A stretch of 55,743 nucleotides of DNA from an uncultured Bacteroidota bacterium (lineage in GTDB: Bacteria; Bacteroidota; Bacteroidia; 2-12-FULL-35-15), in assembly GCA_903926385.1 (NCBI GenBank), contig CAIYIS010000056.1, positions 1 through 55,743 of the forward strand, read 5' to 3'. Below, piece after piece: positions 14,600 to 25,005 of the stretch. A program made the translations under genes and the position numbers. The notes beneath the pieces were generated by a model, which was not told the DNA's origin, made no database searches, and saw only the letters and a program-made list of their open reading frames with translations. Within the stretch, counting starts at the first letter, position 1. Every line of letters begins with the position of its first letter.

Positions 14600-17500
14600 A
14601 TGAAAAAAAGAATTACAATTTGTTTAGTAAAAAGTAAAAAGAACATCATAATTTCTACGATGTTTTCTTTGCTCTTTTCGTTTAGCTCTTCTGCACAAGT
14701 TTTCTGGACTGAGAATTTTAATAACGGATGTACTGGGCAGGGCGCACCTTGTGGTAATATTAACGCGTATATTGGCGGCCCAAATGGTCCATGGACATCA
14801 ACCCTAGGAGCCGGAAATACTGGGACTGACCCCAATACTTTCTATGTTAGTTGTACTGAAAATGGTAATCCTGTGGGTGTCGGAGGTACTTCTTGTGGTG
14901 GGGCCGCCACGTGTGGTGTAGCTTCTCCTAGTAATGCTACTTTGCATGTCGGTAATATTTCTACCTCACCTTTAGCTGGGTTTGCTTGCCCTACTGGAGA
15001 TTGCGGAGCAGCCTATGATGCTGGTTTTATTGGAGGTGCTGTTGAAACAGATATTAGGGCAGAATCTCCAACAATAAATTGTACAGGTCATACTGGAATA
15101 TCTATAAATTTTAATTACATGTTGGGTGGAGATCTTGGTGTAGATTATGGGGAGGTTGTGTATTCGGATGATAATGGTGTTTCTTGGTATTTTTTGGCTA
15201 GTCCGAACATTACAGCACTTTGTGGCGGAGCCCAAGGAGAGTGGGCTTCTTATACATTTGCGTTACCTGCGACATGTGATAATAATCCCTTTGTGAAAAT
15301 TGGTTTTCATTGGGTTAATAATGATGATGGTACAGGTACCGATCCTTCTTTTGCCATCGATGATGTTACTTTATCAACTGCAGCAGCTAATACAATAACA
15401 ACAAGTCCGCTGGTGGGTCCATTTTGCGCCTGTTCTACTATCAACGTGCCGTTTACAAGTACAGGTACTTTTAATGCAGGAAATGTTTATAAAGCCGAAC
15501 TGTCTGATGTAACTGGAAGTTTTACCACCTTCGCTCTTATTGGAACTTTAAATAGCACCGCTAATTCCGGTACTATTTCATGTACCATTCCTTGTAATAC
15601 TCCTGCCGGCTCTAATTATTTTATACGAATAGTTGCCACAAGCCCTGCTACTACAGGTACAGCTAACTTGGTGCCTTTTACCATTAATGCTCAACAGGAC
15701 GCTTCTTTTATTTATTCTTCTTCTTCCTATTGTCAGGCAGGGACTAACCCAAGTGCATCGATCACGGGTGTTGCCGGAGGAACTTTTACATCCACTCCTG
15801 CTGGTTTGGTGATAAACGCTTCAACAGGATTGATTACTTTAGCCACTAGTGCAATTAACACTTATACTGTTACCTATACCACAGCTGGTCCGTGCCCAGG
15901 AACATTTACTGCTACTATATCAATAACCGGTAGTCCGGTTGCTACATTTAATTATCCATTAGCTTCCTATTGTACTAATGTCGCTGACCCTTCGCCAGTG
16001 TATACAGGAGGAGGAACAGCAGGAAATTACACAGTTGCGCCTTTAGGCTTAGTATTTATAAGTGCAGGTACCGGACAAGTTGATGTTTCGGCAAGTGTGC
16101 CCGGAACATATACAGTAACTAATGATATTCCTGTGAATGGTGGATGTGCAGCCGCTACTGCATCCACTACAATAACGATTAATGCAGTTCAGGATTCTAC
16201 TTTTTCATATCCCACCGGACCTACATTCTGCCAATCGGGAACTAATCCTTCTCCAACAATTTTGGGAACAGCAGGTGGAACATTTACCGCCACTCCTGTC
16301 GGGTTAAGCATAAATGCAGTTACCGGGGTTATTAATTTAGCTGGCTCTACTCTTGGAACATATAATGTAACTTATACCACTCCGGGTCCTTGTGCCACTT
16401 TTATGTCACAATCGGTTACAATAACATTGGCTCCTGTGGCTACTTTTAATTATACAGCTTCGCCTTATTGCCAAAGTGCAACCAACCCTGTACCCACATA
16501 CACAGGAGGAGGAAGTGCAGGAACATTTACTTCTGCTCCAGGTGGATTGACTTTCGTAGCTGGAGGAACAGCGGGTGAAGTTGATTTGATTAATTCAGCT
16601 GCCGGAACATACACGGTTACTAATACAATAGCTGCATCCGGAGGATGTCCTGTTGCAACATCTACCGCAACCATTACCATTATTGCAACTCCTGCTGCCA
16701 ATTTTAGTTATATCGGAAGTCCATATTGTTCGGCAGGATTAAATCCATCTCCAACCTTTAGTAATGGAGGTATTGCCGGAACATTTACTGCAACTCCTGT
16801 AGGCCTAAACATTGTGGCAAATACAGGTGCAATCACATTAAATTCGAGTACTCCCGGAACTTATTCAGTAACCAACACAATAGTTAATGCCGGCTGTCCA
16901 AATTCTGTATTTACTTCATCTGTTCAAATTATTTCTGCACCTGTTGCTACTTTTAGTTATACTGGTACTCCTTATTGTATAAATGGAGGTACAGCAACAC
17001 CAACCTTTTCTGGAGGAGGAGTTGCGGGAGCATTTACCTCTACTCCTGCCGGACTTGTTATTAATGCAGTTACCGGAGCTGTTACTTTAGCTACAAGTAC
17101 TGCGGGAACTTATACTGTTACCAATTCACTTGCTGCTACGTCCAGTTGTCCTGCTGTTTCCGCAATCTCAACTATTGTTGTCAATGCGTCTCCAACAGTA
17201 ACGGTTAATTCGGGAACAATTTGTGCAGGCGATACTATTCATTTAACCGCAGCAGGAGCAACCTCGTATACTTGGTCGGCTGGTGCTACTTCTACCGGAA
17301 CAACCACAGCTATTGCTTTTCCTGTAACAACAACTTCTTATACAGTTACCGGAACAGTTGGTAGCTGTACAGGTACAGCTGTTGCTACAGTTACCATTTC
17401 TGCACAATTGCCAGTAACTGTAAATTCTCCTACAATTTGTAACGGACAAACGGCAACATTAACTGCAGGAGGAGCTACCACATACACATGGTCAGCAGGT

Positions 17501-18424
17501 GCAACCTCATCGGGAGTGACCACTGCCACAGCCTCCCCAGTAGCTACTGCTTCTTACACAGTAACAGGTCATACCGGAAATTGTACTGGAACGGCTGTGG
17601 CAATAGTTACAGTTCAAGTATGTGTTCCTCCTGTAGCCGACTTTGCTGCATCACCATTGTATATTTGTACGAGCGGATGTACTACCTTTTACGATTCTAG
17701 TTCCTCTAATACTACTAATTGGTTATGGCAATTTCCGGGAGGTATACCTTCTACATCCACTTCGCAAAATCCGGGGCAGGTTTGTTACTCCGCAGTGAAT
17801 GACTACACTGTAATGCTTACGGTGATGAACGCACAAGGAGATACAAGCACCTTAATAATGCCGAACTACATACATGTGGTAGATCCAATTCAGGTTCATA
17901 TTACTGGAAATACTATGGTGAATACTTGCGAATCGACTGATTTAACTGCTCAACCAGCCGGTTCGAGTTATTTGTGGGGAGAGCTGCTTGCTTCAGGAAT
18001 AAATACAATAGCGTGCGGAACTTGCCAAACTGCTACCATTACACCTAGTTTCACTGATACGTATTTTGTTCAGTATCGCGATGTGAACGGATGCGCCTCA
18101 ACTGATACCACAGCTGTTACCATAACCAGTATTTATACTTATTTTATGCCTACCGGTTTTTCACCGAATGCTGATAATATAAATGATGAGTTAATTGTTC
18201 ATGGTCGAGGAATTGAAAGTATAAATTTAAAAATCTTTGATCGAATTGGAGAAAAAGTATTTGAAACATCAAGCTGGGACAGTGATAAAAAAGAGTCTGC
18301 AGGTTGGGATGGAAAATATCACGGTATATTGATGAACGAAGGAGTGTATGTTTACGAGCTAACTGTAACTTATTGTAATCAGCAAACAGAGAAGGCAAAC
18401 GGGAATGTTAATTTAGTAAAATAA
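14600..18424 (+). CDS. Large repeat adhesin with gliding-motility-type C-terminal domain
   Basis: A 1,274-aa secreted protein with a signal peptide ending at SSSAQ. An N-terminal ~250-residue jelly-roll-like domain is followed by six tandem ~83-residue repeats (about 15686-17180; each begins like PVATFNYTxSPYC and ends like GTYTVTNTI...CP). Two ~70-residue Ig-like repeats (about 17190-17620; VTVNSxTIC...TYTWSAGATS) come next, then a PKD-like domain (VADFAASP...WLWQFPGG). The C-terminal ~90 residues (FMPTGFSPNADNINDEL...NLKIFDRIGEKVFET...GWDGKYHG...GVYVYELT) are the CHU_C/T9SS type B sorting domain. The protein is therefore secreted by T9SS and surface-attached. It lies 45 bases upstream of a PorP/SprF gene and is likely its cognate cargo, like SprB with SprF. 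Confidence 0.93.
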   Translation: MKKRITICLVKSKKNIIISTMFSLLFSFSSSAQVFWTENFNNGCTGQGAPCGNINAYIGGPNGPWTSTLGAGNTGTDPNTFYVSCTENGNPVGVGGTSCGGAATCGVASPSNATLHVGNISTSPLAGFACPTGDCGAAYDAGFIGGAVETDIRAESPTINCTGHTGISINFNYMLGGDLGVDYGEVVYSDDNGVSWYFLASPNITALCGGAQGEWASYTFALPATCDNNPFVKIGFHWVNNDDGTGTDPSFAIDDVTLSTAAANTITTSPLVGPFCACSTINVPFTSTGTFNAGNVYKAELSDVTGSFTTFALIGTLNSTANSGTISCTIPCNTPAGSNYFIRIVATSPATTGTANLVPFTINAQQDASFIYSSSSYCQAGTNPSASITGVAGGTFTSTPAGLVINASTGLITLATSAINTYTVTYTTAGPCPGTFTATISITGSPVATFNYPLASYCTNVADPSPVYTGGGTAGNYTVAPLGLVFISAGTGQVDVSASVPGTYTVTNDIPVNGGCAAATASTTITINAVQDSTFSYPTGPTFCQSGTNPSPTILGTAGGTFTATPVGLSINAVTGVINLAGSTLGTYNVTYTTPGPCATFMSQSVTITLAPVATFNYTASPYCQSATNPVPTYTGGGSAGTFTSAPGGLTFVAGGTAGEVDLINSAAGTYTVTNTIAASGGCPVATSTATITIIATPAANFSYIGSPYCSAGLNPSPTFSNGGIAGTFTATPVGLNIVANTGAITLNSSTPGTYSVTNTIVNAGCPNSVFTSSVQIISAPVATFSYTGTPYCINGGTATPTFSGGGVAGAFTSTPAGLVINAVTGAVTLATSTAGTYTVTNSLAATSSCPAVSAISTIVVNASPTVTVNSGTICAGDTIHLTAAGATSYTWSAGATSTGTTTAIAFPVTTTSYTVTGTVGSCTGTAVATVTISAQLPVTVNSPTICNGQTATLTAGGATTYTWSAGATSSGVTTATASPVATASYTVTGHTGNCTGTAVAIVTVQVCVPPVADFAASPLYICTSGCTTFYDSSSSNTTNWLWQFPGGIPSTSTSQNPGQVCYSAVNDYTVMLTVMNAQGDTSTLIMPNYIHVVDPIQVHITGNTMVNTCESTDLTAQPAGSSYLWGELLASGINTIACGTCQTATITPSFTDTYFVQYRDVNGCASTDTTAVTITSIYTYFMPTGFSPNADNINDELIVHGRGIESINLKIFDRIGEKVFETSSWDSDKKESAGWDGKYHGILMNEGVYVYELTVTYCNQQTEKANGNVNLVK

Positions 18425-18469
18425 ATATAGAATTTTAAACAAGAATAAATTTTCGAAACAATAAAAAAT

Positions 18470-19504
18470 ATGAAAAAAGTAACTACCATTTTGTTTTCTC
18501 TTTGTGCGTTTGCTTTCACAGCATCATCACAGGATCAACATTTTTCGCAGTTTTATAGTTCTCCTACTACATTAAATCCTGGAAATACCGGAGTGTTTAA
18601 TGGTGATGTACGTGCTTACACTTTATATCGTATGCAATGGTTTACTGTAACTACTCCTTACAAAACGTTTACTATTTCGGTAGATGCCCCAATTTTTAAA
18701 AAGAAAATGAAAAATCTCGATTTCTTTTCAGCAGGATTAAACGTGAATAATGATGCTCAGGGAACAGCCATTGTTAAAACAAATTCTTACAACGCATTGC
18801 TTTCCTTCACCAAATTTATTGGGGGACGTCAGAAACATAATATTACTTTGGGTTACGAAATTGGATATGCAACTCGCTCTGCAGCAATGGGAGGATTAAA
18901 ATGGGATAGTCAATGGGATGGGATGCAATACGACCCTTCCTTACCTAGTGGAGAAGCAGGAGGTGGAGGTATTGGATTCTTGGATATGTCGACCGGATTG
19001 GTATGGAATTTTAATACAGACCACCTTTTCAGAAGTGCAATGGGTTTTTCTTTTCACCATTTTACAGCTCCTAATGTTTCGTTGGTGGGAGGACAAGACA
19101 GACTGTTTCCTAAATTTGGTTTTCAATGGTTAGTTAATTATAAATTGAGCGAAACCAGCAATACTACTCTCGAGCCAGCTTTGAATGTGGCTCAACAAGG
19201 AAGTTCGCTTTTATTAGACGGTGGATTAAGTGCAAAATTTGTTCTTTCCGATCGTTCGCACTACACTGATAACAGAAATGATAAAGCACTTCACTTAGGT
19301 ATTTATTATCGTTTGCGCGATGCTTTCTTTGTTACCGCTCGTTTTGATGTTGCCGATTTTTCGGGTTCTATTGCCTATGATATGAATATTTCAGGTCTTA
19401 CTCCGGCTTCGCACTCAGTAGGCGGTTTTGAAATAATGCTTGCTTATCGCGGTATATTTTTCGGACATAAAAATGCAAAACGCGAAAGTGTAAGATTTAT
19501 GTAG
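18470..19504 (+). CDS. PorP/SprF family type IX secretion outer-membrane protein
   Basis: A 344-aa protein with a signal peptide (ends FTASSQ) followed by the family hallmark DQHFSQFYSSPTTLNPGNTG and a beta-barrel-rich body (YRMQW, FFSAGLNVNND, GYEIGYATRS, FEIMLAYRG). Members of the family help secrete or anchor large T9SS type B cargo, as SprF does for SprB in gliding. It follows the repeat adhesin by 45 bases with a shared terminator, so the pair is likely co-transcribed and works as a cargo-carrier unit. Confidence 0.95.
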   Translation: MKKVTTILFSLCAFAFTASSQDQHFSQFYSSPTTLNPGNTGVFNGDVRAYTLYRMQWFTVTTPYKTFTISVDAPIFKKKMKNLDFFSAGLNVNNDAQGTAIVKTNSYNALLSFTKFIGGRQKHNITLGYEIGYATRSAAMGGLKWDSQWDGMQYDPSLPSGEAGGGGIGFLDMSTGLVWNFNTDHLFRSAMGFSFHHFTAPNVSLVGGQDRLFPKFGFQWLVNYKLSETSNTTLEPALNVAQQGSSLLLDGGLSAKFVLSDRSHYTDNRNDKALHLGIYYRLRDAFFVTARFDVADFSGSIAYDMNISGLTPASHSVGGFEIMLAYRGIFFGHKNAKRESVRFM

Positions 19505-19536
19505 TCTATCAGTTAACCTACTTTCAATAAAAAGAG

Positions 19537-19570
19537 AATCCCTCGGTAAACTTTACTGAGGGATTTTTTA
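19537..19570. terminator. Bidirectional terminator
   Basis: A 13-bp stem with one G-T pair (arms 19537-19549 and 19553-19565, 3-base loop) is followed by T6. It lies between the convergent PorP/SprF gene and the PPR-like gene. Confidence 0.85.
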
Positions 19571-19620
19571 TTGTGGATAAGTTATTAGCATTGCATCTCG
19601 ATATAAGAGGAAATGAAGTT

Positions 19621-21582
19621 TTACTCTTTATGTAAATCATACCATTCTTCTATTTTTTGTATTTGTTCTTTATTAGTACCAGCCAGTTTTTTCATCTCTA
19701 TTTTCATTTTGAAATGTGGTTTTATCCAATTGCCTAAATAATCTTTCTCTAAAATCATTTTCTCGAGTAGTTGAAAAGCCTCATTAAATGAAGGACTCAT
19801 GCATATTAAAATTTTGTACATCGAAGCATCGGAGTGAATGCCTTTACGCTTCATGTTTTCGTGCAAATCAAGAACTGTTTTGAATCGGTTGTCATTTTCC
19901 CACCACAATGCAAGCATAAACAGATTAAAATATGTGCTATGTTTTACTTCGAGGTTGTCATTTTCAATACATCTAAACCATTTCATTGCTTCCTCGAAAT
20001 TTGGAGAAATGGCAATAAGTTTTTCATAAGTAATCCAGTCAGCTAAATCCGAATCTATCTTCTTATACCAGTTTAATGCGGTTTCGTAATCGGGTGCTTT
20101 ATCGATAAGCCATGTAAATGTGGCGGCATTTGTTTTTTCGGGGTTAATTAAACTATACCAATGCAGGGCAGTTTCGTAATCGGGGCTTTTGCAGATTAAC
20201 CAATTAAGTGCTTTAGTGGAGGCATGGTCGTTGGTGATGGTGTTATACCATTGCACCGCCATTTCGTAACTTTCGGTTTTGAGTATTACATACGTTATAG
20301 CCGAAGCTGTTCGGTCGGCCAATTTTAATTTATTGAACCAATGTAAACAGGTAGCATAATCGGGCGATTTGGCCACCATTGCCTTTATACATTCAGGCTC
20401 GTTTTCCATGCCTTTTGCTTTCATTATTTCATACCATCGCAAGGCGGTTTCAAAATCGGGGGCTTTTTTGGCAACAGAAGAATAGCTGAACACATTTTCC
20501 TTGTTTTTCTCTATTTTATCAAACCATTGCAGGGCAGTGGTATAATCGGGCGATTTATCTATCATATAATTATAGGTATAGGTAAATGCATCACCGGGTT
20601 TTATTTTTTTGTGCCAAAACAATGCTGTTTTATAATTAGGAGAACGCGAAATGAGGGCATTTAGCGTTAGCACATGATCGTGGCCCGAAGGCATTTTGTT
20701 ATACCATTCCATTGCTATTCTATGATTGGGCGAAAGGCGAATGATGGTGGTGTACGAAAATTCTGATACTTCGTGTAATTCTAATTTTTCGTACCATATC
20801 ATGGCGTTGGTGTAGCTATTCGATTTTGAAATGAGTAAATTATAGGTAAAAAGATTGGCTTTGCCCGGTTCCATTAATTCATAATAGCTCAAGGCTGTTT
20901 TGTATTTTGGCGACAGTTTTATGAGTGTGTGATAGGAGGGAACAAAAACCGTATGTGTTATTTTTTGGTAATAGGTAAGTGCTGTTTTGTAATCCGAACA
21001 ATTGGTAAGAATATAATTATAGGTATAATTGTTTCTTTCTTCTTCAGGTATTTTATTATACCATTCTAAAGCTGTTTCGTAAGATTTGCTTAAATAAATA
21101 AGATGATTATAAAAAGAGTTTTTTAGTTTTTTCGGGTCTAGTTTAGCAAACCAATCTAAAGCGGTGTTGTACTGATACGATTTAAGAAACATTTTGGAAT
21201 ACGTTTTATTTGTTGGTGTGAGGCCATGCTCGAGCAGTTGATTATACCAAGACAATGTATGTTCGTAATCGGTCGAAAAATCCATAAGCCTGTGATAGGC
21301 TTCTAAAAGAGGTGTTCCATGCTTAGATTTTAAAATGTTTAACCAATACTCAGCATCGTTTAGGTTTTTGCATTGAAAAATCATGCTCGAGTAAGTATCA
21401 TTGGTTACTTCTATCGTTTTCGGAATGCGCTCGTACCATTGCATAGCGGTGGCATAATCGGGGGCTGTTTGAATGAGTAAGTTAAAAATATAAATATCGG
21501 GAGCAGGCTTGTTCATGCGTAAATACAAGAGAAGCGTGGTGTAGTCGAAATTTTTTATTTTATTTTTTTCTTCTTCTGTCAT
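19621..21582 (-). CDS. PPR-like tandem-repeat protein
   Basis: A 653-aa cytoplasmic protein without signal peptide or membrane segment, built almost entirely of ~19 tandem helix-turn-helix repeats of 29-33 residues from ~residue 30 to 625. The consensus is roughly [TF]Y-N-x-LI-x-K-SPDY-x-TALxWYxKI, with ~6-10 residues to the next unit. Some units are close to the pentatricopeptide consensus: LLEHGLTPTNKTYSKM, MKAKGMENE and ENMKRKGIHSDASMYKILI. PPR proteins bind single-stranded RNA and are abundant in plants but rare in bacteria. The position equivalent to PPR residue 5 is mostly L, Y, W, A, T, S or H instead of N/S/T, and repeats are shorter than 35, so the known RNA code need not apply. TPR/SEL1-like protein binding is the alternative. 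The gene is monocistronic between two terminators. Confidence 0.8.
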   Translation of the reverse strand: MTEEEKNKIKNFDYTTLLLYLRMNKPAPDIYIFNLLIQTAPDYATAMQWYERIPKTIEVTNDTYSSMIFQCKNLNDAEYWLNILKSKHGTPLLEAYHRLMDFSTDYEHTLSWYNQLLEHGLTPTNKTYSKMFLKSYQYNTALDWFAKLDPKKLKNSFYNHLIYLSKSYETALEWYNKIPEEERNNYTYNYILTNCSDYKTALTYYQKITHTVFVPSYHTLIKLSPKYKTALSYYELMEPGKANLFTYNLLISKSNSYTNAMIWYEKLELHEVSEFSYTTIIRLSPNHRIAMEWYNKMPSGHDHVLTLNALISRSPNYKTALFWHKKIKPGDAFTYTYNYMIDKSPDYTTALQWFDKIEKNKENVFSYSSVAKKAPDFETALRWYEIMKAKGMENEPECIKAMVAKSPDYATCLHWFNKLKLADRTASAITYVILKTESYEMAVQWYNTITNDHASTKALNWLICKSPDYETALHWYSLINPEKTNAATFTWLIDKAPDYETALNWYKKIDSDLADWITYEKLIAISPNFEEAMKWFRCIENDNLEVKHSTYFNLFMLALWWENDNRFKTVLDLHENMKRKGIHSDASMYKILICMSPSFNEAFQLLEKMILEKDYLGNWIKPHFKMKIEMKKLAGTNKEQIQKIEEWYDLHKE

Positions 21583-21643
21583 GCTGTTTTCAATTTAGCT
21601 TGAGCAAAAATAATAGTTCTGTTTTAGATTTAAAAATATTTTC

Positions 21644-21684
21644 AAAAAAAAATCCTGTTCATTTATGTTGAACAGGATTTTTTT
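21644..21684. terminator. Terminator
   Basis: A perfect 11-bp stem (AATCCTGTTCA / TGAACAGGATT) with a 7-base loop is flanked by A7 and T7, so it can work on both strands. It lies just downstream of the 21708-22652 gene (minus). Confidence 0.85.
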
Positions 21685-21707
21685 ATTTTACTTAAAACCT
21701 GATTGCC

Positions 21708-22652
21708 TTAAAGCACCATTGTATAAGTAGCCGAATTGAGCGTCAAGTTTTTTATTTGAACCACTCTGTGGGCCGAATTACCTGCATCCGGAAATTTAAT
21801 AACGGTGGGCACTCCAGCCGGAACAAACATACCTGTTGGTTTTACTATGTTTTTAGCTGTATCGATTACCCACACCTGGCAATCTTGAGTAGCAGTAACA
21901 GTAAATGTACTGCTGGCTGTAAATTTATGCGTTAATGCAGTTTTAATTTTAGAGCCATGCACAGTGCCGTTGTATGTGCTGCCATGAGCTTGTTTGTACA
22001 AGTTGGCCACATCAATAAAACTTTCAATCTTGCTAGGGTTATTGGTAAATTTAGTAATCATCAACCCGTGGTCGTAAAAATGCGCTTCGCACACAGCAGC
22101 AATGGCTGCTTCTTGCGCTCCTGTTAGTCCCGAAATAGTAGATTTTTTGCCCAATTGAGCATTACGTTTGGCAATTAAAGCATTGTAACGAGTTGTAATA
22201 AGTGCCGACACTGCATTTAAACTGCCATTGGCCAAGGTAGCAGCTGCCAATGTTTTTACGGCTTCTATTTTTGCATCTATTCTTCCTTGTAAAATAGTAT
22301 TAACACCATTAGGGAAAAACCCTTTAAAAATAGCACTTCTGCGCGGAGCCACAGCTGCAATCATGTTTTGCCACAAAGGCAATTCTATAGTACGAATGGT
22401 GGTAAACTGGTCTTTTAGTGAAGCTGTATCGGTTATACGGCCTCCTATGGTTACATCTTTACTTACATCGGCCGACACCAAATTGTTGTGTAAAGTTTGG
22501 AAAATAGCTTCACGTGCAGCTATGTCCGCATCAGAATTGTTAGCCGTTAAGGCATTGAGGTGGAACTCGGAAATGATTAACGCTAGTGTGTAATTGTTAC
22601 GTACAGCGTTCGAAATGAAATTTTGTGAAAAAATAAAATTTGTTGCACTCAT
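21708..22652 (-). CDS. Hypothetical protein, unknown
   Basis: A 314-aa protein without a clear signal peptide. Residues 1-~215 are helical and alanine-rich (TLAAATLANGSLNAVSALI; AQEAAIAAVCEAHFYDHG). Residues ~230-314 are a beta-rich module that ends in a strand (TYTMVL) reminiscent of Bacteroidota carboxypeptidase-like or Ig-like folds (VPAGVPTVIKFPDAG). I do not recognise a family. It has its own terminator and a possible -7 element TAATTTTG (minus strand, 22711-22718). Confidence 0.65.
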   Translation of the reverse strand: MSATNFIFSQNFISNAVRNNYTLALIISEFHLNALTANNSDADIAAREAIFQTLHNNLVSADVSKDVTIGGRITDTASLKDQFTTIRTIELPLWQNMIAAVAPRRSAIFKGFFPNGVNTILQGRIDAKIEAVKTLAAATLANGSLNAVSALITTRYNALIAKRNAQLGKKSTISGLTGAQEAAIAAVCEAHFYDHGLMITKFTNNPSKIESFIDVANLYKQAHGSTYNGTVHGSKIKTALTHKFTASSTFTVTATQDCQVWVIDTAKNIVKPTGMFVPAGVPTVIKFPDAGNSAHRVVQIKNLTLNSATYTMVL

Positions 22653-22690
22653 CTTGTTTAGGTATTTGTTGTTTATTTTTTTTTGTTACA

Positions 22691-22705
22691 GCAAAACTGT
22701 TTTGC
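22691..22705. promoter_or_regulatory. Short palindrome upstream of the 314-aa gene
   Basis: GCAAAAC-T-GTTTTGC is a perfect inverted repeat about 40 bases upstream of the start codon, next to a possible -7 element. It is a candidate operator; nothing more can be said. Confidence 0.35.
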
Positions 22706-22924
22706 TCTGCCAAAATTATTTACTTCTCTGAAAATAATAATCTCAAAATCAAACTATTTTTCTAAAACTGATAACAATCATATTTAACCCGGATTATCTG
22801 TTTTTGTAACCCAAATTAGAAAACTTACTTTGCCTGTTGCATAACTTGTTGTAAAATAATAGGAAATAAAAATTGATTTAAGTAACACTTCAGTGTTTCG
22901 AACTTAAATTTGTGTTTGCAATAC

Positions 22925-23218
22925 CAACATTGCGTTGTTGGTGTCCCAATTATTTGTTTGATATAGCAACAATGCGTTGTTGGTGTTCCAACTATTTGTT
23001 TGATATGCCAACAATGCGTTGTCGGTGTTCCAACTATTTGTTTGATATGGCAACATTGCGTTGTTGGTGTCCAAATTATTTATTTAATATAGCAACAATG
23101 CGGTGTTGATGTTCCAATTTTTTATTTTATAGGGCAACAATGCAGTGTTGATGTTAAAACTATTTGTTTGATAGGCTAACAATGCGGTGTTGTTCGACCA
23201 ACCAATTATTATTTTGGT
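22925..23218. repeat. 42-bp tandem hairpin repeat array, 7 units
   Basis: Seven direct repeats with an exact 42-base period start at 22925, 22967, 23009, 23051, 23093, 23135 and 23177; the last decays. Each begins with a small palindrome, CAACA-N6-TGTTG (typically CAACAATGCGTTGTTG), followed by a T-rich spacer such as CAACTATTTGTTTGATA. Substitutions within the palindrome mostly fall in the loop, so pairing is kept in all units. Because 42 is a multiple of three, repetitive reading frames run through the array on both strands. None has a credible start or family, so I treat it as non-coding. The flanks (22719-22924 and 23219-23365) hold no gene that I can support. Confidence 0.9.
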
Positions 23219-23365
23219 GAATGCTTGAATAGAATCGACAAATGAATTTGCCCTGTTTTTAACCAAAAAATATCTCCCCTCAAAATTTTACTAAAATGAT
23301 ACTTATTGTTGAAGTAATAATTGAAAAAATGTGGGATTGATTAAGTTTTTGGATGGCATCTAGGT

Positions 23366-24952
23366 TTAATTCTCCCAGCTTTTGTCAGGTGCTTTTATTT
23401 TGATAATAGCAACATCATTCTTTATAAAATCGAGTAGTTTTCCATTATCAATCACAGCAAGCTTAATGTTTTTTTGTTTTAACAATCGATAGTTTTCGAA
23501 AGTTAAAGATGTGCGATAAGCAGTAAAGTTGGTATAAAACATAATGGAGATATCTCTTTCGGGTTTGCAATTAAAAATAACATAATCATCAGAGCCAATT
23601 TTCTCCTTCAACGATTTTATAAACTGTGCATCATTTATTTTTTCTATTCTTTTATCATTGTCATTCGGGTTAATAAACATGGTGTGTTTATGCGCTATTT
23701 GATGTAAATCTAAATTTCCTAAAACCAAAAAAAGCGTAATTATCAAAATTAAGGGATAGTGAATAAATTGATTTTTTATCAATTTGAATTTAATCAATGC
23801 AAAAATTGACTCGATGACACAGGCCAATGCAAGAAAAATTAAAGGAGAAACGATATAACAAAATCCTACCATTTTGGTAGCTGCTAAAGTGAAAAACAGA
23901 TACACGAAAATGATGTTTGCAAAAATGCCAATTTTGAACGCATGGTTATTTAATTTTCTAAATAGAACCAGAAGCGCGATAATAACAAGATAAGGCACAA
24001 AATCTCCCGCACCATAAAGTGTTTCTAAGTTTTTGAAGTAGTACCAAGCATCACCTCCATGCAACTCCACTACATTAAAAAAATGTTTAGTATTAAGAGC
24101 GTATTCGTAATGGCTTTCGTTAGGAAAGTGGCTTAGAATATAGAGTTGCCATGGAACAAAAATAAGTAAACAAAAAATAAAACAGAGAATAATGTTTTTA
24201 TAAAAGACAAATGAAGTTCTTTTTTCTTTATCAAAAAGTATGGACAGCCCCCAACCTAAATACACTAACAACCCAACTAACCATTTTACCAAAACTGCGC
24301 ATCCGCTAAAAAAGGCAATAAGTAGCAACCAATAACGGTTTCCGGAGCTTTCGTATTCTATCCAAGCCCACAAACTGGCAGTGATGTAAAATACAAATGC
24401 CAAATCGTTATGGTCGCTTGCCGGAAAACCTGAAACAAATTCGTGCATAAAATAATTTGAACAAAACAACACAGCACCATAAAATCCTGCTCTCGCATTC
24501 AAGCTCAGTTTGCCTATTCTATATATGAATAAGGGCACAATGCTCATCATGATAATGCTCGGAATACGCACAGCAAACTCGTTTATTCCAAATAATTTTA
24601 AACTCAACGCGATTTGCCATAAAAATAATGGTTGCTTATGCAGCCATACATGATTACAAGTCCAGTTGACGAAATCATACGGAACTATAGGTTTTTCAAT
24701 AAGAGTAGGCATGAGTGGATGCAAAAGAATATTTTTTGCAACCAATGCATGAAATTGTTCATCCCACGAATTTAAGAAAGGGTCGAGCATTGCCATAAAA
24801 GAACAAATAAACAAACCCGCTAAAAAAATAAGCCAAAGGCTTAATTTGTTTTTCTCGAAAATTTCGAATGAAACAATTGCTGAGAAAAGTAGCAACAAAC
24901 CAATAAGCAGCACAAAGAATGTAGTGGAAGGGAAATTGAAAATGGTGCTCAT
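23366..24952 (-). CDS. ArnT/PMT-like (GT39) membrane glycosyltransferase
   Basis: A 528-aa polytopic protein with ten or more hydrophobic segments. The GT-C acidic pair is D64-E65 in NSWDEQFHAL, followed by HKQPLFLWQ and an INEFAVRIPS helix, matching the other ArnT-like protein at 11285-12922. A soluble C-terminal part begins near residue 430. It is probably an envelope glycan or lipid transferase using a polyprenyl-phosphate sugar; acceptor unknown. It is read in the same direction as the operon upstream of it (25006-29371) but separated by 53 bases. Confidence 0.88.
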   Translation of the reverse strand: MSTIFNFPSTTFFVLLIGLLLLFSAIVSFEIFEKNKLSLWLIFLAGLFICSFMAMLDPFLNSWDEQFHALVAKNILLHPLMPTLIEKPIVPYDFVNWTCNHVWLHKQPLFLWQIALSLKLFGINEFAVRIPSIIMMSIVPLFIYRIGKLSLNARAGFYGAVLFCSNYFMHEFVSGFPASDHNDLAFVFYITASLWAWIEYESSGNRYWLLLIAFFSGCAVLVKWLVGLLVYLGWGLSILFDKEKRTSFVFYKNIILCFIFCLLIFVPWQLYILSHFPNESHYEYALNTKHFFNVVELHGGDAWYYFKNLETLYGAGDFVPYLVIIALLVLFRKLNNHAFKIGIFANIIFVYLFFTLAATKMVGFCYIVSPLIFLALACVIESIFALIKFKLIKNQFIHYPLILIITLFLVLGNLDLHQIAHKHTMFINPNDNDKRIEKINDAQFIKSLKEKIGSDDYVIFNCKPERDISIMFYTNFTAYRTSLTFENYRLLKQKNIKLAVIDNGKLLDFIKNDVAIIKIKAPDKSWEN

Positions 24953-25005
24953 CTGATTGTAAAAGGGACTTCCATTTTAATTGATTTTATTTTTGGAAAT
25001 ACCGA

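What the first reader, a model, noticed from the sequence alone, without database searches (positions are those of the whole stretch)
19621..21582. Bacterial protein built of about 19 PPR-like repeats
Seen: nearly the whole 653-aa cytoplasmic protein is a tandem array of 29-33-residue helix pairs with a strong SPDY...TALxWYxKI consensus, and some units read like classical PPR motifs. Known: PPR proteins are RNA-binding and rare in bacteria. The residues at the code positions are not the N/S/T usual for PPRs, so a new RNA (or protein) recognition mode is possible.
Basis: partly seen in the sequence, partly recalled or inferred. Interest (0 to 1): 0.78.

Follow-up and report, generated by a model that had tools for sequence, protein, structure and literature searches.

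The report
Bacterial protein of 19 short PPR-like repeats
A bacterium carries a protein built almost wholly of 19 repeats related to the RNA-reading PPR repeats of plants and mitochondria, but each a few residues shorter, and similar short repeats turn up in a handful of related bacteria joined to or beside signalling and defence-type genes, which suggests that bacteria may have their own RNA-reading repeat proteins.

Summary
The gene is on the minus strand (653 aa) and has 18 clean repeats plus one irregular one. The repeats are PPR-like rather than TPR or SEL1: the profile's best solved-structure hits are PPR proteins (E 1.9e-38; best SEL1 3.5e-5; no TPR under 1), and a predicted seven-repeat piece lies on an RNA-bound designer PPR over 211 of 211 residues at 3.1 Å. 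The repeats are not canonical: helix A and its turn are three residues shorter than in 35-residue PPRs. The same shortening occurs in rare PPR proteins of six other genomes of the phylum, with cyclase-like or AAA/STAND-like domains, or, in G514, beside a candidate phage-defence gene. Best explanation: a free-standing single-stranded-RNA-binding protein with a degenerate PPR code. RNA binding is inferred, not shown. Against it: neutral charge, position 2 hydrophobic in under half the repeats, last position rarely N/D, and Pfam scores of the protein itself that do not put PPR first. New variant of a known kind.

The parts
19621..21582 (-). Whole gene: 653-aa repeat protein (P0001), single copy in its genome
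19756..21492 (-). Repeat array, residues 31-609: 18 clean short PPR-like repeats plus one irregular unit
   Evidence: matrix parse and shuffle control; helices
20323..20955 (-). Residues 210-420, seven repeats folded alone (best model pLDDT 87.2); aligns 211/211 residues to dPPR-U8C2 (5i9g), Z 17.6, rmsd 3.1
19825..19965 (-). Irregular longer repeat (about residues 540-586), with a more classical PPR look
   Evidence: (best PPR_2 stretch 563-593)
19624..19755 (-). C-terminal helices, residues 610-653, no repeat match; low model confidence
21493..21582 (-). N-terminal residues 1-30: a degenerate first helix pair (cap)
   Evidence: reading by eye
21646..21684 (.). Hairpin of 16 pairs with A-run and T-run (listed on the + strand, symmetric by eye) between this gene and the upstream gene, probably a terminator
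   Evidence: 3 terminator-like sites in the region, 1.7 expected by chance

Best explanation
The protein is a free-standing helical solenoid of about 19 short PPR-type repeats (29-32 residues; helix A and its turn three residues shorter than in 35-residue PPRs). It most likely binds single-stranded RNA along its concave helix-A face, one base per repeat. The side chain at position 5 would sort pyrimidine (N) from purine (S/T), and the last residue of each repeat would add partial specificity. With no catalytic domain it would act by occupancy: protecting, masking or remodelling one or a few transcripts of the cell or of an invading element. Shown: repeats, PPR kinship, the shortened helix A shared with other bacterial PPRs, N/S/T at position 5. 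Inferred: RNA binding, use of the code, cellular role. If the plant code applies, the repeats on which both orthologs agree predict 5'-YNNRYYNNRYYNNRYR-3'.
For: Ortholog profile against PDB sequences: designer PPR 1.9e-38, PAP2 1.8e-11, PPR10 1.2e-10; best SEL1 3.5e-5; no TPR under 1. Foldseek with the full model: ranks 1-16 all PPR proteins, PPR10-RNA 1.3e-9 (two mitoribosome chains and one plastid polymerase chain identified as PPR through). Seven-repeat piece: Z 17.6, 211/211 residues, 3.1 Å on RNA-bound dPPR; best row named TPR Z 11.8. Two-repeat HMM from the orthologs: G531 150, G231 102, G299 94 bits; G860 pieces 73 and 122, G948 pieces 37 and 98; controls plant PPR 19, four SEL1 proteins 0.4-33, TPR 0.8. 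Same 12-residue spacing from position 5 to the helix-B small residue in P0001 and these bacterial PPRs; 15 in the plant control. Position 5 N/S/T 13/18 and 14/17. Its class (N, S/T, other) is kept repeat by repeat between orthologs in 12 of 17 (two of them 'other'), 6.1 expected, p 0.004, lowest of 26 columns; last position p 0.033. In G231, 11 near-identical repeats vary mainly at positions 4, 5 and last, plus V/I at 2 (code in PMC4837458, passages).
Against: P0001 is below Pfam's PPR_2 cut-off (22.2 of 30), with SEL1 25.6 and TPR_30 27.8, also below theirs, slightly higher; the ortholog passes PPR_1, PPR_2 and PPR_3 but also SEL1. Net charge is neutral. Position 2 is hydrophobic in only 8 of 18, and the last position N/D in only 6 of 17, against all in G231, G299 and G531; the basic helix-A end is absent from G531 (0 of 6), so it is no class-wide mark. 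By plain identity position 5 does not stand out (p 0.098; positions 20, 6, 19 and 3 lower), and the class result does not survive correction for 26 columns. G514, a sixth short PPR protein, scores only 25 bits with the two-repeat HMM, no better than the SEL1 controls. Both folds are single-sequence predictions in which three of five (whole: 62.6, 42.7, 30.3; piece: 44.0, 32.0, 30.1) models are poor; for the piece only one Foldseek match is under 0.001. N at the matching place also occurs in TPR consensus (recalled). No RNA data.
Confidence: 0.58

Rival explanations
1. A PPR-shaped solenoid that has turned to binding protein or peptide, a scaffold like TPR and SEL1 proteins.
For: Helix B consensus DYxTALxWYxKI is SEL1/TPR-like; SEL1 25.6 bits, the ortholog 38.8 over cut-off 30.7; weak NCBIfam score to the TPR protein MamA (12.7 of 200); neutral charge; degenerate position 2 and last position.
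Against: Profile, HMM and fold comparisons prefer PPR; N/S/T kept at position 5.
Confidence: 0.27
2. A SEL1 or TPR family protein whose resemblance to PPR is convergent.
For: Both genome-contig hits of the P0001 scan are SEL1 proteins.
Against: SEL1 controls score at most 33 bits, best repeat pair 13; TPR 0.8; bacterial short PPRs 37-150 with best repeat pair 20-47, G514 (25, best pair 2.6 by the same measure) excepted. SEL1 3.5e-5 against PPR 1.9e-38.
Confidence: 0.05
3. A eukaryotic PPR gene taken up recently by transfer, or contamination.
For: PPRs are mainly eukaryotic (PMC4029402, passages); sporadic, 2 of 36 genomes of the genus.
Against: GC 35.8% equals the window; type IX secretion genes on the same 55.7-kb contig; ortholog only 37% identical; the shortened helix A is shared with other genomes of the phylum and not with the plant control.
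Confidence: 0.05
4. RNA-binding but without sequence specificity, a general RNA chaperone.
For: Last-position residues are mixed.
Against: Position-5 class kept between orthologs.
Confidence: 0.05

Closest known systems
P-class PPR proteins (PPR10, designer dPPR, cPPR)
   Same: Tandem helix pairs, TYNxLI helix A, N/S/T at position 5, repeat-for-repeat superposition on RNA-bound dPPR
   Different: 29-32 residues, not 35; helix A and turn three residues shorter; W in helix B; last position rarely N/D; bacterial
Bacterial short PPR proteins found here: G231, G860, G948 (cyclase-like N terminus), G299, G531 (AAA/STAND-like N terminus), G514 (260 aa, repeats only)
   Same: 12-residue spacing from position 5 to the helix-B small residue; G860 also has the helix-B W. 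G514 is free-standing like P0001
   Different: Five of the six have N-terminal signalling-type domains; code residues are cleaner; G514 is followed by a DUF3644 gene, P0001 has no such neighbour
SEL1 and TPR proteins
   Same: Helical solenoid; helix B consensus like SEL1
   Different: Weaker profile, HMM and fold scores
Bacterial PPR proteins in print (Ralstonia, Rhodobacter, Legionella longbeachae: PMC2824747, passages; PaAvs5-3 repeat domain: PMC12931631, one passage)
   Same: PPR repeats predicted in bacteria
   Different: Not compared by sequence here

Membership tests
PPR (canonical P class) | 35-residue repeat | tested here: not met
   29-32 residues between starts; so filed as a short PPR-like variant, not a canonical P-class member
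PPR (canonical P class) | Pfam PPR gathering score | tested here: not met
   P0001 PPR_2 22.2 of 30; the ortholog's 43.4 passes
PPR (superfamily) | Profile similarity to PPR above TPR and SEL1 | tested here: met
   Pfam scores of P0001 alone do not show this order
PPR (superfamily) | PPR-type superhelix | tested here: met
   Predicted model only:
PPR (superfamily) | N/S/T at position 5 | tested here: met
   13/18 and 14/17
PPR (superfamily) | N/D at the last position | tested here: inconclusive
   N/D 6/17 and 7/16; N/D/S/T 11/17 and 10/16
PPR (superfamily) | Hydrophobic position 2 and basic end of helix A | tested here: inconclusive
   Position 2: 8/18 and 11/17; K/R at column 10: 9/18 and 9/17, none acidic
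PPR (superfamily) | Sequence-specific ssRNA binding | not testable with these tools
   needs Bind-n-Seq or CLIP
SEL1 repeat | Pfam Sel1 gathering score | tested here: not met
   P0001 25.6 of 30.7; the ortholog's 38.8 passes as a sum, with no stretch passing alone
TPR | Pfam TPR gathering score | tested here: not met
   TPR_30 27.8 of 29.7

The most novel reading that the evidence does not exclude
Bacteria of this phylum hold their own class of PPR repeats with a shortened helix A, used as sequence-specific RNA readers: joined to cyclase-like or AAA/STAND-like domains, or paired with a DUF3644 candidate defence gene, as RNA sensors in signalling or phage defence, and, as here, standing alone as a 19-repeat RNA-binding protein. 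The class could be an indigenous bacterial counterpart of organellar PPR proteins.
Probability: 0.38. Interest if true: 0.85.

Novelty: new variant of a known kind. Interest (0 to 1): 0.64.

Why it matters
PPR proteins are described as eukaryotic, organelle-serving RNA readers. A compact bacterial class with the code positions in place would give smaller RNA-binding modules, would bear on where PPRs came from, and in its cyclase, STAND-like and DUF3644-linked forms would be an RNA-sensing input for bacterial signalling or defence. Nine searches of the held library listed no paper on it; that library lacks most subscription journals and preprints.

Tried and rejected
Viral contigs with P0001 and A1, phage records with P0001, the G231 and the G531 repeats: nothing. 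Plasmids: a SEL1 protein with P0001; with the G231 repeats a plant-type PPR on a Rahnella record and two Lactococcus Cna B-type proteins, not followed; with the G531 repeats the same Rahnella record and a Legionella lytica hit, not followed. PADLOC: none for P0001; weak mad8 (E 0.0014) for G299 and Unk_02 (E 0.02) for G231. PHROGs: only families of unknown function for P0001. Pfam also lists HTH_48 and PH_17 just over cut-off for P0001 and the ortholog; no stretch passes alone and I take them for sums over repeats. Operon link: the upstream gene (21708-22652) has eight matches in the own genome, itself included, is present in 7 of 37 genomes searched, and a hairpin lies between, so I treat it as unrelated; likeness to the gene beside G299's PPR was tested and not found (E 4.1). 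Five-repeat period: whole-repeat p 0.073 and 0.064, position-5 class p 0.133 and 0.037 at lag 5 (also p 0.005 at lag 10 in P0001), not convincing over ten lags. Rows dropped: the irregular repeat is left out of all position counts; the repeat at residue 517, absent from the ortholog, is left out of the 17-pair test. Set aside: G180 (TPR/SEL1), G452, G464 and G713 (SEL1), read and confirmed by Pfam. No SEL1 chain is among the 50 rows shown by VIA for either model; absence there excludes nothing. HEPN in the gene beside G231 has no library support.

Full report
WHAT IS THERE. The 653-aa reading frame lies on the minus strand, 19621-21582. A matrix built from the protein and its ortholog finds 18 repeats, starts 29-32 residues apart but for one gap of 70 that holds an irregular unit; 300 shuffles gave 0.007 hits on average, at most 1. 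A typical repeat reads xTYNxLIxKSPDYETALxWYNKI plus a linker of about seven residues. The gene is single-copy in its genome, has the GC of its surroundings (35.8%), and shares its contig with type IX secretion and sorting-signal genes. I see no operon: the upstream gene belongs to a multi-copy family with a different distribution, and a hairpin lies between. No Rfam match in 17000-25000.

DISTRIBUTION. Of 36 genomes of the order, all of one genus, 2 have the gene: the window's own and G034 (37% identity, 633 aa, one repeat fewer). By reading, the two copies have different neighbours. In 395 class genomes 5 matched the two-sequence profile at 1e-5: G000, G034, G231, G299, and G180, which is TPR/SEL1. 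In 395 phylum genomes 7 matched: G000, G231, G531 and G514 (PPR), and G452, G464, G713 (SEL1). With the wider profile A3, 2 of 294 genomes of G531's class (G531, G860) and 2 of 4 of G299's family (G299, G948) matched at 1e-6. Samples overlap. Other phyla were not searched with these profiles; a genome-contig scan with P0001 alone found two SEL1 proteins.

PPR, TPR OR SEL1? Pfam on P0001 passes no PPR, TPR or SEL1 cut-off: PPR_2 22.2 of 30, SEL1 25.6 of 30.7, TPR_30 27.8 of 29.7, so by that test alone PPR is not ahead. The ortholog passes PPR_2 (43.4), PPR_3 (41.2), PPR_1 (25.2) and SEL1 (38.8, no stretch alone). Against PDB sequences the single protein hits designer PPRs at 1e-10, SEL1 and consensus TPR at 0.14 and 0.15; the two-sequence profile hits PPRs at 1.9e-38, natural PPR10 at 1.2e-10, SEL1 at 3.5e-5, no TPR under 1. 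A two-repeat HMM gives G531, G231 and G299 94-150 bits, a plant PPR 19, four SEL1 proteins 0.4-33, a TPR 0.8, shuffles at most 3.3; pieces of G860 and G948 37-122; G514 25, which is within the SEL1 range. The AlphaFold models use one sequence; the best have mean pLDDT 75.7 (whole) and 87.2 (residues 210-420), while three of five in each case are clearly worse. Foldseek's first 16 PDB rows for the whole model are PPR proteins; for the piece the first 13 are, though only one is under E 0.001. VIA: RNA-bound dPPR-U8C2 aligns to the piece over 211 of 211 residues at 3.1 Å, Z 17.6, 244 of its residues against our 211, that is, repeat for repeat; best row named TPR Z 11.8. Whole model: designed PPR Z 17.9; best row named TPR 12.5, and a BBSome chain 12.8. 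The fold is predicted, not solved.

HOW IT DIFFERS. From position 5 to the helix-B small residue (A in 16 of 18) there are 12 residues here and 15 in the plant control, so helix A and its turn are three residues shorter; the linker is zero to three shorter. Helix B carries a W and resembles SEL1.

CODE POSITIONS. In designer PPRs positions 5 and 35 pick the base (ND U, NS C, SN A, TD G; NN fits U and C), Val2 clamps it, and Lys13 at the end of helix A meets the phosphate (PMC4837458, passages); the field now says 'fifth and last' (PMC13041630, passages). Here position 5 is N/S/T in 13 of 18 (ortholog 14 of 17; plant control 9 of 12), the last position N/D in 6 of 17 and 7 of 16, position 2 hydrophobic in 8 of 18 and 11 of 17, and helix-A column 10 K/R in 9 of 18 and 9 of 17 with none acidic; G531 has no K/R there. 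N/S/T enrichment alone is weak evidence, as columns 3, 11 and 16 are rich in N/S/T too. A sharper test asks whether the residue class is kept repeat by repeat between the orthologs: at position 5 in 12 of 17 (two of these 'other' in both) against 6.1 expected, p 0.004, lowest of 26 columns under the same scheme; last position p 0.033, position 3 p 0.035; under physico-chemical classes position 5 p 0.002, position 6 p 0.006, last position p 0.17. By plain identity position 5 does not stand out (p 0.098). As the PPR code names the position beforehand I read this as suggestive; corrected for 26 columns it is not significant. Net charge is neutral.

BACTERIAL SHORT PPRS. Six other genomes carry PPR proteins over Pfam's cut-off with repeats about 32 residues apart and the same shortened helix A. 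G299 and G531 have an N-terminal domain with a Walker A motif, 32% identical to each other, AAA/STAND-like by eye and by sub-threshold Pfam scores for G299 only (AAA_14 16.3 of 27; none for G531); PDB searches were inconclusive. G231, G860 and G948 share a domain whose profile hits class III cyclases (9 of 11 rows under E 1, counting the Ma1120 rows; best 8.4e-4); Pfam gave no cyclase hit, so I call it cyclase-like. In G231, 11 near-identical repeats differ mainly at positions 4 (Y/F/W), 5 (N/S) and last (N/D), besides V/I at 2: what one expects of a protein that spells a sequence with the code. Beside it lies a 218-aa gene with an RxxxxH pattern, HEPN-like by eye only. G514 has a 260-aa protein of short PPRs and, 18 bases downstream on the same strand, a gene of Pfam DUF3644 (182 bits of 27.6) that matches PADLOC's candidate defence system PDC-S19 (E 5.3e-139). 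That DUF3644 is of HEPN type is recalled, not tested. PPR_2 exceeded its cut-off in 2 of 395 class genomes.

MECHANISM. I commit to an RNA-binding solenoid acting by occupancy. Repeats on which both orthologs agree in class give 5'-YNNRYYNNRYYNNRYR-3' if the plant code and its orientation (N terminus to 5' end, recalled) hold. The main rival is a protein-binding scaffold on a PPR frame; degenerate position 2 and last position, neutral charge and the SEL1-like helix B leave it a real chance. The defence setting of some relatives is a lead, not evidence about this gene, which has no such neighbour in the window by reading its ORFs and the few neighbours scanned.

LITERATURE. [quoted passage not shown] PMC2824747 (passages): 12 bacterial PPR proteins in two species then known, plus two in Legionella longbeachae. 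PMC12931631 (one passage): PPRs predicted in the repeat domain of PaAvs5-3. PMC13327615 (passages) did not bear on bacterial PPRs. Nine searches listed no paper on short bacterial PPRs or PPR-cyclase fusions; the library lacks most subscription journals and preprints. The phylum is unnamed by the tools; from its type IX secretion genes I take it for Bacteroidota (inference).

Noticed in passing
L047:172-2187 (G514): A free-standing 260-aa short PPR protein followed after 18 bases by a DUF3644 gene that matches PADLOC's PDC-S19, a candidate phage-defence family.
   Followed up: partly
L017:877-3153 (G231), L065:1-1218 and L066:3773-4747 (G860), L067:3-1115 and L068:2-415 (G948): Class III cyclase-like domain and near-identical 32-residue PPR repeats; in G231 the repeats vary mainly at the PPR code positions. 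The G860 and G948 arrays break at contig ends and were read in pieces.
   Followed up: partly
L016:4696-6507 (G299), L049:5234-7090 with open frame from about 5012 (G531): Walker-A, AAA/STAND-like domain joined to six or seven short PPR repeats, in two different families of the phylum.
   Followed up: partly
L017:140-796: 218-aa gene next to the cyclase-like PPR gene with an RxxxxH pattern, HEPN-like by eye, no library support.
   Followed up: partly
L042:4101-6311 (CP036489.1, Rahnella aquatilis plasmid record): A plant-type PPR gene with 35-residue repeats on a record called a bacterial plasmid; looks like plant contamination of the record (inference). Used as PPR control.
   Followed up: partly
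NZ_CP071528.1:357752-358456 (Legionella lytica plasmid): Match (E 8e-8) to the G531 PPR repeats in a hypothetical protein.
   Followed up: no
window 21708-22652: 314-aa protein of no Pfam family with eight matches in the own genome, itself included (one other 78% identical), and a patchy presence in the genus.
   Followed up: partly
window 19621-21582, position-5 residues: Position-5 classes of both orthologs hint at a five-repeat rhythm (Y N N R Y); whole-repeat tests do not confirm it.
   Followed up: yes
L006:8072-8392: Upstream of the ortholog in G034 lies a frame made of SLFPIPY-type short repeats, probably a DNA repeat rather than a gene.
   Followed up: no
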